The notes under the pieces were generated by a model. That model made no database searches and was not told the DNA's origin. It saw only the letters and a list, made by a program, of their open reading frames with translations. Below are positions 49,458-54,180 of a DNA stretch of 64,000 bases, in pieces. The stretch is from Clostridia bacterium (lineage in GTDB: Bacteria > Bacillota > Clostridia > Oscillospirales > Acutalibacteraceae): contig JAFQRA010000011.1 in the NCBI GenBank assembly GCA_017410325.1, forward strand, positions 25,574 to 89,573, given 5' to 3'. Positions within the stretch are counted from its first letter, which is position 1. Each line of letters begins with the position of its first letter. The translations under genes were made by a program, and so were the position numbers.

Positions 49458-51500
49458 ATGCTTCAGTTTTCAAGCAACATTCAATATCTCAAGGGAGTAG
49501 GCGAAGCCCGTGCCAAGCTGTTTCGGCGGCTTGGCGTGGACAGCGTCGGCTCCCTTGTGCGCCTTTATCCGAGGGCTTATGAGGATTGGAGCAGTACCGT
49601 TTCGATTCTCGATGCCGTACCGGGTGAAACCTGCTGTATAAAAGCAACGGTCTGCGCCCCCGTAACCCACGCCCTTATCCGCAAGGGTATGACGATTTAC
49701 AAAACGGAGGCGACAGACGGCGAAAATATAATGAAAATTACGATTTTCAACAACCGCTTTGCCGCAGAGAAGCTAAAAGAGGGCGAGGAATACCTCTTCT
49801 TCGGCAAAATTTCCGCCTATGGCTACAGCAGGGAAATGTCCTCTCCGCAGATTGAAAGAGCCGTTACGGGCGAGAGAATACGCCCCATTTATCCGCAGAC
49901 GCAGTCGCTAACCTCACGCACCATAGAGGGCTGTGTGAAGCGTGCGCTCGAAACGCTTGAAGCCCTGCCCGAGGACGTTTTAAGCGAAGAAATCCGCAGC
50001 CGCTACGCCCTTTGTTCATACAAAGAGGCTCTGCATAAAATCCATTTCCCGACTACGCAGGCAGACGTAATGACCGCGCGCAGACGCTTAAGCTTTGAGG
50101 AGCTTTACGTTTTGCAGACGGGTCTTCTGCTGCTGCGCGGCAGAAGCCGCAAAAAAACGGGCTGTAAAATAGAAAAGGATTTTTCCGATGAATTCTTTTC
50201 GCTTCTCCCCTTTACCCCTACGGGCGCACAGCAAAGAGCCGTCGGCGAAGCGGTAAACGATATGTCGGGCGCAACGCCGATGAACAGGCTTTTACAGGGT
50301 GACGTAGGCTCGGGCAAAACCGCAGTTGCCGCCGCACTAAGTTACACCTGCGCAAAAAACGGCTTTCAGTCCGCAATTATGGCACCGACCGAAATTCTTG
50401 CCGTACAGCATTACAAAACCTTTGCTAAGCTGCTTGAAGCCACCGATTTGAAGGTTGAGCTTCTTGTCGGGTCAACCCCTGCAAAAGAAAAAAAGAGGAT
50501 AAAGCAAAGCCTTTTGACGGGTGAAACCGACATAATCATAGGCACACACGCGCTTATACAAAAGGACGTTGAATTCAACAAATTAGGGCTTGTGGTAACA
50601 GATGAACAGCACCGCTTCGGTGTCGGTCAACGCAGTGCACTCGGCTCAAAAGGCTATAACCCCCACACGCTGGTTATGTCCGCAACGCCCATTCCCCGTA
50701 CGCTTGCGCTGATTATTTACGGCGACCTTGACGTGAGCGTGCTTGACGAATTGCCCGCAGGCAGGCAGAAAATTGAAACCTACGCCATTGACGGCACAAT
50801 CCGTCAGCGTGCCTACGGCTACGTGAAAAAGCACCTTGACGAGGGCAGGCAGGGCTACATAGTCTGTCCGCTTGTTGAGGACAGCGAAAGCCTCGACCTT
50901 GCCGCCGCAGAGGACTACGCCGAAAAAATAGCGAAAAAGGAATTCGCAGGCTACAGCGTGGGGCTTCTCCACGGCAAGATGAAGCCCAAGGACAAGGAAG
51001 CGGTTATGGCCGCCTTTGCAAACGGCGAAATTCAGCTTCTCGTTTCCACAACGGTTATCGAGGTTGGCGTTGACGTACCAAACAGCGTTATTATGGTTAT
51101 TGAAAACGCCGAGCGTTTCGGACTTTCACAGCTTCACCAGCTGAGAGGCAGAGTGGGCAGAGGCAAGCACAAATCGACCTGTATTCTGATTTCCGACGCA
51201 AAGGGCGAAACCGCACAGAGAAGACTGAAAACAATGTGCAAAACCACCGACGGCTTTAAAATTGCCGACGAGGATTTGAAGCTGAGAGGCCCCGGCGATT
51301 TCTTCGGCGCAAGACAGCACGGTCTGCCCGAAATGAAGATAGCCGACCTTTCAAGCGACATGGAATTACTAAAGCAGGCACAGCAGGCGGCAAAGGACAC
51401 ACTTCACCTTGACCCTGCCCTGCGAAGCGAAAAAAACGCCCCCCTAAAGGCGGCGGTAATAGAGCTGTTTGAAAGAATGGGCCCGAATGGGATGAACTGA
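49458..51500 (+). CDS. recG: ATP-dependent DNA helicase RecG
   Basis: A 680-residue RecG. The N-terminal wedge (OB) domain is followed by a helicase core: Walker A GDVGSGKTAVAA, DEQHRF box, SATPIPRTLAL, and the C-terminal QLRGRVGRG (motif VI) with VIEVGVDVPNS (motif V). It regresses stalled replication forks and processes Holliday junctions. It starts 4 bases after yloV stop and ends the run; the following hairpin repeat at 51529 may help end the transcript. Confidence 0.97.
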   Translation: MLQFSSNIQYLKGVGEARAKLFRRLGVDSVGSLVRLYPRAYEDWSSTVSILDAVPGETCCIKATVCAPVTHALIRKGMTIYKTEATDGENIMKITIFNNRFAAEKLKEGEEYLFFGKISAYGYSREMSSPQIERAVTGERIRPIYPQTQSLTSRTIEGCVKRALETLEALPEDVLSEEIRSRYALCSYKEALHKIHFPTTQADVMTARRRLSFEELYVLQTGLLLLRGRSRKKTGCKIEKDFSDEFFSLLPFTPTGAQQRAVGEAVNDMSGATPMNRLLQGDVGSGKTAVAAALSYTCAKNGFQSAIMAPTEILAVQHYKTFAKLLEATDLKVELLVGSTPAKEKKRIKQSLLTGETDIIIGTHALIQKDVEFNKLGLVVTDEQHRFGVGQRSALGSKGYNPHTLVMSATPIPRTLALIIYGDLDVSVLDELPAGRQKIETYAIDGTIRQRAYGYVKKHLDEGRQGYIVCPLVEDSESLDLAAAEDYAEKIAKKEFAGYSVGLLHGKMKPKDKEAVMAAFANGEIQLLVSTTVIEVGVDVPNSVIMVIENAERFGLSQLHQLRGRVGRGKHKSTCILISDAKGETAQRRLKTMCKTTDGFKIADEDLKLRGPGDFFGARQHGLPEMKIADLSSDMELLKQAQQAAKDTLHLDPALRSEKNAPLKAAVIELFERMGPNGMN

Positions 51501-51551: not shown

Positions 51552-51670
51552 AAGTATTATTCATTATTCATCAGCGTAAGCGACTTCATCATTCATTATT
51601 CATTAAATATTTCCATAGGGGCAATTCACTTGCTTGTCCGTTGTGAAAGCGATATGATGTTTGAAACCTA

Positions 51671-51699
51671 TTGACAAAGAAAAGGTTTTCCCATATAAT
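51671..51699 (+). promoter_or_regulatory. Perfect consensus promoter of the antitoxin-like RNA
   Basis: TTGACA (51671-51676), 17-base spacer, TATAAT (51694-51699). Confidence 0.85.
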
Positions 51700-51705
51700 A
51701 TGAGT

Positions 51706-51801
51706 GTAAGGTGTTGCCGATAGACGGTTACGCCCTCAGAATAACGTTAAGTTAAGAAATAACCGCTTGTTTTCTCAGGACAGGGCGGTTATTTCTTTTT
51801 T
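51706..51801 (+). ncRNA. Candidate antisense RNA (type I antitoxin)
   Basis: A transcript of about 95 bases is bounded by the promoter at 51671 and the terminator formed by AAGAAATAACCGC (51754-51766) and GCGGTTATTTCTT (51785-51797) with T-rich tail. Its end overlaps the end of the opposing 28-residue toxin-like gene (51789-51875). The segment CGCCCTC (51731-51737) is complementary to GAGGGCG next to the toxin Shine-Dalgarno site. Both transcripts begin with the same GTAAGGTGTTG. No open frame of note. Confidence 0.7.
51754..51801. terminator. Bidirectional terminator shared by antitoxin RNA and toxin mRNA
   Basis: A 13-base perfect stem (51754-51766 with 51785-51797) and TTTTTT on the + strand; the minus side has an A+T-rich follow-on. 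It overlaps the toxin stop codon. Confidence 0.75.
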
Positions 51802-51875
51802 GTCAGTTCGACAACAAGTGCTATGATTGAAACCAAAAGCGTTCCCAAAAGGAACAGTTCTTCGTATGTAACCAT
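51789..51875 (-). CDS. 28-residue holin-like toxin (type I TA)
   Basis: ATG 51875 after AAGGAGGGCGGTGCCA opens 28 codons to TAA at 51789. The peptide is an acidic start (MVTYEELF), one hydrophobic helix (LLGTLLVSIIALVVEL) and a basic end TKKK. This is the plan of the small holin-like toxins of Gram-positive type I systems (putative holin-like toxin, TxpA/BsrG-like). The Shine-Dalgarno site is buried in the perfect stem CCCTCC/GGAGGG (51884-51900), and a second leader hairpin GAGGGC/GCCCTC occurs at 51908-51929. Insertion in the membrane is expected. Confidence 0.75.
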   Translation of the reverse strand: MVTYEELFLLGTLLVSIIALVVELTKKK

Positions 51876-51968
51876 TGGCACCGCCCTCCTTTCCGGAGGG
51901 AAAAGGCGCCCTCCGAATAAAACGAGGGCAAACCGCCTACCGTGTTATGACAACACCTTACGTAGGAT

Positions 51969-51997
51969 ATATTAGCACAAATGTTCGCACAAGTCAA
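51969..51997 (-). promoter_or_regulatory. Promoter of the toxin mRNA
   Basis: Minus strand TTGACT (51997-51992), 17-base spacer, TAATAT (51974-51969); start of transcription near 51962, giving an 85-base leader. Confidence 0.75.
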
Positions 51998-52073
51998 GTA
52001 GGGGCGATTTTTAATCGCCCGCCGTGAAAGCGATATAGCGGTAATTTACGGGCGATTCGTGAATCGCCCCTAC
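51998..52073. repeat. GTAGGGGCGAT paired repeat
   Basis: GTAGGGGCGATTTTTAATCGCCC and GGGCGATTCGTGAATCGCCCCTAC face each other over 76 bases. The GTGAAAGCGATAT between them recurs at 51642 and in part at 59212. Confidence 0.7.
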
Positions 52074-52374: not shown

Positions 52375-54180
52375 TTAATAAATTACTCTGTTTACTCCAA
52401 ACAGATTTTTAAAGAATGAAACGAACTTCTGCCAGAAGCCCGCCTTTGAGGTGACTGTGATTTCGTCAAAAATCTCCTCGCCGTCGGCGTTGGTAACAAC
52501 GTTTTCGTCTGTGTCAACCAGCTTTGCGTAAATTGTTGCGTTACCGTTAGCAATGGAAGTCACACGACACTCCAAGCCGTCTTCACTGACCGTAGTCGAA
52601 ACGCCTGCGCCCTCAACAAACCAATTGACCGCATAACCCTCAGGGATTTCGATTTCTTCAAGCTGAAGAACAAGCGTGTCACCGTAATTTATGGTAGTTG
52701 TTGTCGTTTTATTGATTTTAATTTTTAGCAGTTCAACAGGTAAGGGTTCATCCGGCGTGGGTGCAACAGCGTTCTTCTGCCATACTGCATAAAGCGTTGT
52801 ATTTGCAGTAAGTGTTATGCTGTCACCTGCCGTATAACTCGCCATTGTTGCACTACTGCTCTTTGACCAACCGAGGAAAGTATAACCGCTTCTTGTCGGC
52901 TGTGTGCTACTAATTGTATAGCTTGTTGCACCGCTCTGGCTTGCAGGTGCACCGCTTCCGCCGTTTGCATTGTAAGAAAGGGTGTAGATAATAGGCTTTT
53001 CATCGTTATGCGTTCCATCACAAACTTTGAAAGTAAGAGAGTTATTTTGAGCATATTCTTTTGCAGGACATTCTGAACTCTTACTGCACAAAGTTAAAGT
53101 TTTAGCGCAGTTTGTAAAAGCAGTACTGTCAATAGACTTAATATTTACAGGAATATGTACTGTAGTCAGTGCTGTACAGCCATAAAAAGAACGGTAGTCT
53201 ATTGTTCTTTCGAAGTATCCGTCTGAATTATCTTTTATTACAACTGTTTTCAAGCTTGTACATCCTGCAAAAGCATTGTTACCTGTATTTTTGTAATTTG
53301 CCGGAATTGTTATGCTTTTAAGCGCTGTGCAATTTGCAAATGCGGCGGTATGTATTTCTACTTCTGCTGTTCCGCCTTCTGTTAAAGTTACCGTTTCTAA
53401 TCTAATACAATTTTCAAAGCAATTTCCTGTATATGAGCCTGTTCCTATTTGCTTAATGCTCTTAGGGATTTTTACGGTTTTGAGATACGAACAATCCATA
53501 AAGGCTGAGTCGCCAATTGTTATAAAGCCTTCGGGAATTTCAATCGACTGTAATGCAGTACAACCATAGAAAGAACGGTAGTCAACAATTCTTTCAAAAG
53601 CAACATCAGAATTACTTTTAATAACAACTGTTTTCAAGCTTGTACATCCTGCAAAAGCGTTGTTGCCTGTATTTTTGTAATTTGCCGGAATTGTTATGCT
53701 TTTAAGCGCTGTGCAATTTGCAAATGCGGCGGTATGTATTTCTACTTCTGCTGTTCCGTCTTCTGTTAAAGTTACCGTTTCTAACCTAATACAATTTTCG
53801 AAGCAATTTCCTGTATATGAGCCTGTTCCTATTTGCTTAATGCTCTTAGGGATTTTTACTGTTTTGAGATATGAGCAATTCATAAAAGCATAGTCGCCGA
53901 TTGTTTCTATACCCTCAGGTATAACTACAGAACTAATTGAACTATTGTCTTTAAAAGATGAATAACCTACGTGTTTAACAGAATATCCACCCAAAGATAC
54001 AGGCAATGTAATGTTTGTGTCCGAACCATTATATTTTGTTATGGTTGCGACATTACTGCTTACTGTATAAGTCCAGTCACCGCTAGTATATTCCGTTGCA
54101 GCTTCTGCGCTTATACTTGCTAATAAAAGCATTGTTATTAGTGTAATAAATAACATTGTTTTTCTAAACAGTTTTTTCAT
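52375..54180 (-). CDS. BspA-type leucine-rich-repeat surface protein
   Basis: A 601-residue secreted protein. The signal peptide is residues 1-28 (ending SISAEA). LRR_5/BspA-type repeats with the unit CTALKSITIPANYKN or SFYGCTALQSIEIPEG run over about 70-380. Next comes an InlB-B/Flg_new repeat (YNANGGSGAPASQSGATSY, then FLGWSKSSSATMASYTAGD), a Pro-rich turn and an Ig-like end. BspA-type proteins bind host or food surfaces. Two 128-residue blocks are nearly identical at the DNA level (384-base offset). It ends 'VIY' without a sortase motif, so retention may be non-covalent. Divergent to an XRE regulator. Confidence 0.88.
   Translation of the reverse strand: MKKLFRKTMLFITLITMLLLASISAEAATEYTSGDWTYTVSSNVATITKYNGSDTNITLPVSLGGYSVKHVGYSSFKDNSSISSVVIPEGIETIGDYAFMNCSYLKTVKIPKSIKQIGTGSYTGNCFENCIRLETVTLTEDGTAEVEIHTAAFANCTALKSITIPANYKNTGNNAFAGCTSLKTVVIKSNSDVAFERIVDYRSFYGCTALQSIEIPEGFITIGDSAFMDCSYLKTVKIPKSIKQIGTGSYTGNCFENCIRLETVTLTEGGTAEVEIHTAAFANCTALKSITIPANYKNTGNNAFAGCTSLKTVVIKDNSDGYFERTIDYRSFYGCTALTTVHIPVNIKSIDSTAFTNCAKTLTLCSKSSECPAKEYAQNNSLTFKVCDGTHNDEKPIIYTLSYNANGGSGAPASQSGATSYTISSTQPTRSGYTFLGWSKSSSATMASYTAGDSITLTANTTLYAVWQKNAVAPTPDEPLPVELLKIKINKTTTTTINYGDTLVLQLEEIEIPEGYAVNWFVEGAGVSTTVSEDGLECRVTSIANGNATIYAKLVDTDENVVTNADGEEIFDEITVTSKAGFWQKFVSFFKNLFGVNRVIY
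53251..53887. repeat. 384-base internal duplication in the LRR gene
   Basis: The block beginning CAAGCTTGTACATCCTGCAA at 53251 recurs at 53635 with only scattered changes over about 240 bases (for example AAAGCATTGTT versus AAAGCGTTGTT), and with lower identity before that. A recent in-frame tandem duplication of a 128-codon unit. Confidence 0.8.

What the first reader, a model, noticed from the sequence alone, without database searches (positions are those of the whole stretch)
51671..51997. Convergent type I toxin-antitoxin locus with a buried Shine-Dalgarno site and two-site RNA pairing
A 28-residue holin-like peptide (minus strand) and a roughly 95-base RNA (plus strand) are driven by near-perfect promoters facing each other and share a 13-bp terminator stem that overlaps the toxin stop. 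The toxin ribosome site is locked in CCCTCC/GGAGGG. The antitoxin RNA carries CGCCCTC, complementary to the GAGGGCG at that site, besides the overlapping 3' ends. Both transcripts start with the same 11 bases (GTAAGGTGTTG) as an inverted repeat. The layout resembles Fst/TxpA-type loci, but the identical 5' starts and paired-end design look distinct.
Basis: partly seen in the sequence, partly recalled or inferred. Interest (0 to 1): 0.75.

Follow-up and report, generated by a model that had tools for sequence, protein, structure and literature searches.

The report
SOS-linked type I toxin–antitoxin RNA family
A tiny membrane-peptide gene and a facing small RNA look like a toxin and its RNA brake; the same RNA design recurs with many different peptides in gut bacteria, and here the toxin promoter carries the same 12-base sequence, probably a DNA-damage (SOS) switch, that sits in front of recA.

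Summary
A 28-aa Hol_Tox-like peptide (minus) and a ~97-nt RNA (plus) face each other, share a 13-bp bidirectional terminator over the toxin stop, and the Shine-Dalgarno is predicted buried. The plus promoter is perfect; the minus one is weaker (9/12). Best reading: a type I toxin-antitoxin locus working like par/Fst; two-site pairing is thus not new.

New here: (1) the RNA pair belongs to a widespread family without an Rfam match at gathering score: at least 119 stretches in species genomes, 39 of 398 phylum genomes. (2) One RNA frame carries very different small membrane peptides; 31 of 111 match Hol_Tox. (3) The shared 5' start of the two RNAs co-varies locus by locus (15 of 17). (4) Paralogues keep near-identical 5' halves but different terminator loops. 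(5) In this genus 14 of 24 parsed toxin promoters, and 0 of 24 antitoxin promoters, carry GAACATTTGTGC (at most one mismatch), which also precedes recA. An SOS-induced toxin, as in TisB/IstR-1, is the likely function; nothing was tested experimentally.

The parts
51671..51699 (+). Antitoxin promoter TTGACA-17-TATAAT
   Evidence: 12 of 12 match; best promoter pair per locus family-wide: mean 11.0 of 12, 57 of 116 perfect
51706..51802 (+). Antitoxin RNA (about 97 nt, start and end inferred)
   Evidence: fold z -4.7; model R1 77.1 bits here, this copy being among the sequences of the model
51710..51734 (+). Antitoxin 5' hairpin GGTGT/ACGCC and GCCG/CGGT
   Evidence: cognate arms fold better than swapped arms, z -6.6, n 116
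51719..51730 (+). Antitoxin core GATAGACGGTTA
   Evidence: used as search pattern; present without that selection in 6 of 11 loci found by protein
51731..51737 (+). CGCCCTC, complementary to both GAGGGCG copies of the toxin leader
   Evidence: family-wide cognate bias of this region, z -4.05, n 114
51754..51797 (.). Bidirectional terminator, 13-bp stem, 18-nt loop
   Evidence: 8 of 9 modelled stem pairs have double changes; loops differ between paralogues
51789..51875 (-). 28-aa membrane toxin, Hol_Tox-like
   Evidence: Pfam PF16935 E 1.7e-4, 21.8 bits, below the cut-off 23.3
51884..51889 (-). Shine-Dalgarno GGAGGG
   Evidence: GAGGG unpaired probability ~0 in the predicted mRNA fold
51895..51900 (-). 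CCCTCC, possible partner of the SD or of the upstream GGAGGGCG
51907..51914 (-). Upstream GGAGGGCG, second possible antitoxin target
   Evidence: the shorter leader of the G005 C5 copy (L005/L038) has a single GGAGGGCG
51924..51929 (-). GCCCTC, pairs with the SD region in the predicted fold
51931..51942 (-). Toxin leader core CGGTAGGCGGTT
   Evidence: used as search pattern; found with 0 or 1 mismatch in 9 of 19 loci fetched by the antitoxin model
51951..51961 (-). Toxin transcript 5' start GTAAGGTGTTG, same as the antitoxin start
   Evidence: locus-specific identity
51969..51997 (-). Toxin promoter TTGACT-17-TAATAT
   Evidence: 9 of 12, TG before the -10
51975..51986 (-). LexA-like box GAACATTTGTGC inside the toxin promoter
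   Evidence: same 12-mer before recA, one base off before lexA and before a DinB-type polymerase gene; 14 of 24 parsed toxin promoters of the genus

Best explanation
A chromosomal type I toxin-antitoxin locus that works like par/Fst and, in this lineage, is wired to the SOS response like TisB/IstR-1. The antitoxin RNA is made constantly from a consensus promoter. The toxin promoter is held down by LexA at GAACATTTGTGC between -35 and -10. Leaky toxin mRNA folds with its SD hidden. The antitoxin meets it first through the complementary terminator loops, which give locus specificity, then pairs with GAGGGCG at the ribosome site. DNA damage removes LexA, toxin mRNA outruns the antitoxin, and a single-helix peptide enters the membrane and slows or stops growth. 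Shown here: sequence anatomy, conservation, terminator covariation, the box shared with recA and nearly with lexA and dinB. Inferred: transcription, RNA pairing and its order, LexA binding, toxicity.
For: Anatomy. Toxin: Hol_Tox for the window copy and 31 of 111 family toxins; the profile of these 111 matches SprG1-31 of S. aureus, PDB 7NS1, E 2.6e-4, a described type I toxin. Family. Stem covariation: 100 double-change cells against 29.5 in shuffles. Promoter asymmetry 11.0 against 9.4 of 12. LexA-like box: GAACATNTGTKC has 9 sites in the 2.67-Mb genome, the reversed control pattern 4; they lie before recA, lexA, a DinB-type gene and four toxin loci of this family, plus one unassigned and one inside a DctM transporter gene; genus 14 of 24 toxin sides against 0 of 24 antitoxin sides. 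Paralogues: 5' halves 98% and 94% identical, loops 50% and 52%, shuffled loops 44%.
Against: No transcript, binding or toxicity data. The box differs from GAACN4GTTC by one base. Ten of 24 genus loci lack it at the aligned place; one of these, C18b of the own genome, has it in front of a leader that has lost its 5' part. Family-wide it is rare: 9 of 114 toxin sides within one mismatch of GAACN4GTTC (four of them in this genus, one inside a leader hairpin) against 1 of 114 antitoxin sides. The SD-region pairing has only a modest cognate bias, whole-leader cofolding none that is clear (-4.07 against -3.81 kcal/mol, permutation sd 0.16, 12 permutations). Loop divergence could be neutral, since linkers diverge too, 71% and 64% identical. 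The window toxin is below the Pfam cut-off.
Confidence: 0.74

Rival explanations
1. The antitoxin is a dual-function RNA: its 3' terminator half silences the toxin, while its conserved 5' hairpin acts in trans on something else, as SprF1 does on ribosomes.
For: Among paralogues the 5' half is far more alike than loop or linker, across unlike toxins. Antitoxins without toxin exist (L041, L042). The toxin profile matches SprG1-31, and SprF1 has a ribosome-binding 5' end (PMC8158120, passages).
Against: The 5' core was part of the search pattern, which exaggerates its conservation. The SprF1 element is described as purine-rich; this one is a hairpin. Orphans may simply be decaying (L042 has a poor -35).
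Confidence: 0.2
2. The peptide is not a killer but a regulated membrane peptide with a mild physiological role (for example lowering membrane potential during DNA repair), with the antisense RNA as an ordinary brake.
For: Many copies in species genomes, few in viral contigs (8 stretches), none for this peptide in phage or plasmid records. SOS-type box.
Against: Similarity to SprG1-31 and Hol_Tox; a consensus antitoxin promoter and a hidden SD suggest a product that must be kept very low.
Confidence: 0.18
3. The locus is a small mobile or repeat element whose inverted-repeat ends happen to lie at the transcript starts; the peptides are passengers.
For: Inverted repeats, dispersed copies, unlike ORFs between similar flanks.
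Against: Promoters outside the repeats are kept though their spacers diverge; the cores GATAGACGG and GGTAGGCGG stay different in the two arms; terminator and SD features recur. Empty sites were not looked for, and selection on toxin codons was not measured.
Confidence: 0.06

Closest known systems
par/Fst (par_pAD1 and relatives)
   Same: Convergent promoters, bidirectional terminator, second complementary region over the ribosome site, hidden SD, small membrane toxin (PMC7472228, passages)
   Different: 0 of 111 family toxins match an Fst model at E 0.01; here the two transcripts start with the same locus-specific bases, unlike toxins share one RNA frame, and a LexA-like box lies in the toxin promoter
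SprG1/SprF1 of S. aureus (Hol_Tox/PepG1-like toxins)
   Same: Family toxin profile matches SprG1-31; 13 of 111 match PepG1 at E 0.01; antitoxin acts on the overlapping region and control is cognate-specific
   Different: The SprF1 5' end is described as purine-rich and ribosome-binding; here it is a hairpin of unknown further role
TisB/IstR-1 of E. coli
   Same: 29-aa membrane toxin under LexA, constitutive antitoxin, inhibitory toxin leader structure (PMC8309996, passages)
   Different: Different host group; convergent genes with a shared terminator here (that tisB/istR is arranged otherwise is recalled, not from a call)
BsrG/SR4 of B. subtilis
   Same: One relative (L011) weakly matches Rfam BsrG, 30.4 bits, E 0.0011
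   Different: Below the gathering score of 55; no BsrG match for the window copy (L022) in the same call

Membership tests
Type I toxin-antitoxin (general) | Small hydrophobic peptide with charged C-terminus | tested here: met
   28 aa, KKK end; 112 of 114 parsed family toxins have K, R or H in the last three residues
Type I toxin-antitoxin (general) | Antisense RNA gene overlapping the toxin gene | tested here: inconclusive
   promoters and shared terminator are there and recur in relatives, but transcription was not shown
Type I toxin-antitoxin (general) | Peptide toxic, RNA protective | not testable with these tools
   needs expression tests
par/Fst | Convergent genes, bidirectional terminator, second complementarity at the ribosome site, hidden SD | tested here: met
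   held; by sequence and prediction only
par/Fst | Fst-type toxin sequence | tested here: not met
   0 of 111 toxins match an Fst model in Pfam or NCBIfam at E 0.01
Hol_Tox (PF16935) | Score above the Pfam gathering cut-off | tested here: not met
   window toxin 21.8 against 23.3 bits; best family member E 7.2e-9
SprG1/PepG1 toxins | Profile similarity to SprG1-31 | tested here: inconclusive
   family profile E 2.6e-4 to 7NS1, but the window toxin alone has no NCBIfam match
LexA regulon | LexA operator in the promoter | tested here: inconclusive
   same 12-mer as before recA and one base from the lexA site, but one mismatch to GAACN4GTTC and no binding data
Known Rfam RNA family | Match above gathering score | tested here: not met
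   only a tRNA in the window; six sources scanned by E-value gave no match above a gathering score

The most novel reading that the evidence does not exclude
A common RNA chassis: one convergent sense/antisense RNA pair, with locus-specific identical 5' starts and locus-specific terminator loops, into which unrelated membrane toxins are exchanged. The shared 5' parts would let the two RNAs strand-swap into a duplex, a third recognition site beyond those described for par/Fst, and some lineages have put most of their copies under SOS control.
Probability: 0.3. Interest if true: 0.8.

Novelty: new variant of a known kind. Interest (0 to 1): 0.6.

Why it matters
It gives a recognisable RNA signature for type I toxin-antitoxin loci in gut Clostridia and relatives, where such short genes are hard to annotate. 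It links a Gram-positive type I toxin to the SOS response, which in E. coli TisB is tied to persistence. Ten similar antitoxins in one genome (G005), differing mainly in loop and linker, offer a natural test of how RNA pairs avoid cross-talk. The co-varying identical 5' starts are unexplained and testable.

Tried and rejected
Long-range 5'-3' pairing in the toxin mRNA: seen only because the terminator was cut; rejected with the full-length fold. A toxin-leader hairpin like the antitoxin's: cognate arms fold worse than swapped ones (z +3.8, n 115). Pairing of the 5' halves as cause of their identity: cognate gain -4.07 against -3.81 kcal/mol, not established. RNAalifold on A1 predicted only the terminator. 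LexA control across the whole family: not supported; LexA genes were found in 20 of 23 genomes reached by 24 handles, and the lexA upstream regions printed showed no box shared with their toxin promoters, but minus-strand loci were printed unreversed, so this part is incomplete. The looser pattern CGAACNNNNGTTCG with one mismatch was useless: 38 places, control 310. Phage or plasmid origin: 8 stretches in viral contigs, no match for this peptide in phage or plasmid records at E 0.1. Papers: searches listed no paper that describes this RNA family; one search returned none, one search was dominated by unrelated papers, and the library holds open-licence PMC papers only. Papers seen: passages of PMC7472228, PMC10903887, PMC8309996, PMC4234289, PMC8158120; outline, abstract and passages of PMC6563280; none read whole.

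Full report
The locus lies between recG (49458-51500 +) and a BspA-type leucine-rich-repeat gene (52375-54180 -) (Pfam). Corrections: the toxin promoter matches only 9 of 12, the toxin start is nearer 51961, and GAGGGCG occurs twice in the toxin leader. The leader reads GCCCTC, GGAGGGCG, CCCTCC, GGAGGGCG (SD), so the SD can be hidden by more than one partner; in the full-length fold five of the six SD bases are paired with probability near 1.

Relatives. A second copy, 96% identical in protein, lies beside a threonyl-tRNA synthetase-type gene in the same genome. In the genus, 4 of 11 genomes (the own one included) hold the same peptide and 8 of 11 hold DNA matches. Many DNA matches cover only about query 1-102 (antitoxin) or 232-271 (toxin 5' end): the peptide between them is different. 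Reading them shows three peptide types on one RNA frame: MVTYEELF..., MEYLVM...GYIYTIKKK, and M(R)(M)QY(V/I)T...EHKK. In the own genome model R1 gives 18 matches at E <= 1: five strong ones (E 9.6e-14 or better), one remnant (C17:45163, E 5.9e-5, read) and twelve weaker ones, several of them the terminator on the other strand. One of the five (C17:18935, L042) has lost the toxin, and one (C18b) has lost the 5' part of the toxin leader.

Range. By record title they come from Oscillospiraceae, Ruminococcaceae, Lachnospiraceae, Oribacterium, Emergencia and other Clostridia, from Anaerovibrio, Selenomonas and Phascolarctobacterium (Negativicutes for the two looked up), and from one 3-kb contig of a Phoenicibacter bin (Coriobacteriia), which could be misbinned. 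Most records are metagenome bins. The antitoxin model matched at E <= 1e-4 in 39 of 398 genomes of the phylum, the own genome included; at most 10 candidates per genome were scored, and five genomes reached 10. Viral contigs gave 8 stretches; phage and plasmid records gave none for this peptide. Rfam has no RNA match here at gathering score, and only sub-threshold ones in six sources, the nearest in kind being BsrG at L011.

Data set. From 200 motif candidates I kept 141: the 136 with at most two motif mismatches minus one duplicate, plus six chosen by hand; 116 remained at 90% identity. The 59 dropped were reverse-orientation parses, chance motif pairs and a few further real copies (for example the second of two tandem copies at L018). 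Two motifs were fixed by the pattern, so their conservation cannot serve as evidence on this set. In 11 loci found by protein alone (L011-L021) the core GATAGACGGTYA is exact in 6; the others read GATAGATGGTTT, GGAAAACGGTCA or GGCAAACGGTTA, so the unbiased consensus is near CCGNNARACGG. Of 19 loci fetched by the antitoxin model in the phylum search (L190-L208) my script found the leader core with 0 or 1 mismatch in 9, which was not selected there; in the other 10 it found no good one, partly because it missed the antitoxin core too.

Structure. The terminator stem covaries: 8 of 9 modelled pairs have double changes, with 100 double-change cells against 29.5 in shuffles and 2 to 22 in slid controls. 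The antitoxin 5' hairpin is supported by cognate against swapped arms (z -6.6), which does not correct for relatedness; its innermost three pairs show no double change, two of them lying in the pattern-fixed part. The toxin leader does not form the same hairpin (z +3.8).

The identical 5' starts. In 114 of the 116 loci (two lacked a parsed ORF or flank) the antitoxin's 14 nt before the core match the toxin's 5' region of the same locus with score 9.2, of other loci 5.3; the cognate is best or tied in only 31, because related loci share starts. After thinning to 17 loci with clearly different antitoxin starts the cognate toxin is best or tied in 15, and none of 10,000 permutations reached the observed mean. 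Why is open: concerted evolution of inverted repeats, a shared binding factor, or pairing of the two 5' parts by strand swap. The energy test does not decide.

Specificity. In the own genome (4 copies) and in G005 (10 parsed copies) the 5' halves are 98% and 94% identical, the loops 50% and 52%, with 44% for shuffled loops, and the linkers 71% and 64%. The thrS-side copies of G000 and G006 have the same loop (sequences). A YUNR motif is present in 95 of 103 parsed antitoxin loops (71 expected) and in 72 of the 103 toxin loops (53 expected); 103 of 136 loops could be parsed. This fits initiation at the loops as in par/Fst, but neutral loop drift is not excluded.

Toxins. 114 distinct peptides were parsed, 21-42 aa, 112 with a basic residue among the last three. 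Of 111 scanned, 31 match Hol_Tox, 16 ComI and 13 PepG1, 10 a phage holin family, all at E 0.01. The profile of the 111 matches SprG1-31, PDB 7NS1. The alignment has no invariant column and 20% mean column identity, so kinship of all the peptides is not shown.

SOS link. GAACATTTGTGC lies between -35 and -10 of the toxin promoter. GAACATNTGTKC has nine sites in the genome, the reversed control pattern four. Seven lie before recA (30 nt before its ATG), lexA, a DinB-type polymerase gene, and four toxin loci of this family; one is unassigned and one lies inside a DctM transporter gene. Of 24 toxin loci parsed in the genus (partial matches and orphans left out) 14 have the 12-mer with at most one mismatch, all at -43 or -44 from the leader core; the antitoxin sides have 0 of 24, best four mismatches. 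The B. subtilis operator is GAACN4GTTC and clostridial ones resemble it (PMC4234289, passages). Outside the genus the clearest case is L058, GAACATATGTTC, in the promoter spacer. So SOS control appears to be lineage-specific.

Decay. In G005 the site downstream of recG holds an antitoxin with promoter and terminator but no toxin (L041); G000 has a similar orphan with a poor -35 (L042). Loss of toxin with retention of antitoxin is what addiction predicts, though two cases prove little.

Verdict. The finding is real and better described as one copy of a widespread par-like type I toxin-antitoxin RNA family with very different toxins and, here, a likely SOS-controlled toxin promoter. Two-site pairing is known from par/Fst. 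I found no description of the RNA family, the co-varying 5' starts or the LexA-like box in the searches named under Tried and rejected.

Noticed in passing
L041 (G005:C11, downstream of recG): Orphan antitoxin with intact promoter and terminator but no toxin, at the recG site where G000 has the complete locus; its terminator loop is that of the G000 C18b copy, which has a different toxin.
   Followed up: partly
L042 (G000:C17:18935) and L176 (G000:C17:45163): Two decayed copies in the same genome: an antitoxin without toxin and with a poor -35, and a remnant with little more than the terminator.
   Followed up: partly
51643-51659 and 52024-52040: Repeat GTGAAAGCGATATGATG (second copy with 3 mismatches; 4 places in the window, 0.1 expected) and nearby palindromes such as GGGGCGATT...AATCGCCC flank the locus and resemble sequence beside some other copies; looks like an intergenic repeat family.
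   Followed up: no
L223 (G000:C34:50499): Perfect CGAACATTTGTTCG LexA-type site with no SOS gene identified beside it.
   Followed up: no
L011, L012, L016, L113 toxin promoters: In other genera the toxin promoter spacer holds TGTCGAAATATGATA-like sequence instead of the LexA-like box; a second regulator is possible.
   Followed up: partly
L015, L017, L018, L194, L195: Antitoxin variant with core ACCGGAAAACGGT or CCGGCAAACGGT in some lineages.
   Followed up: no
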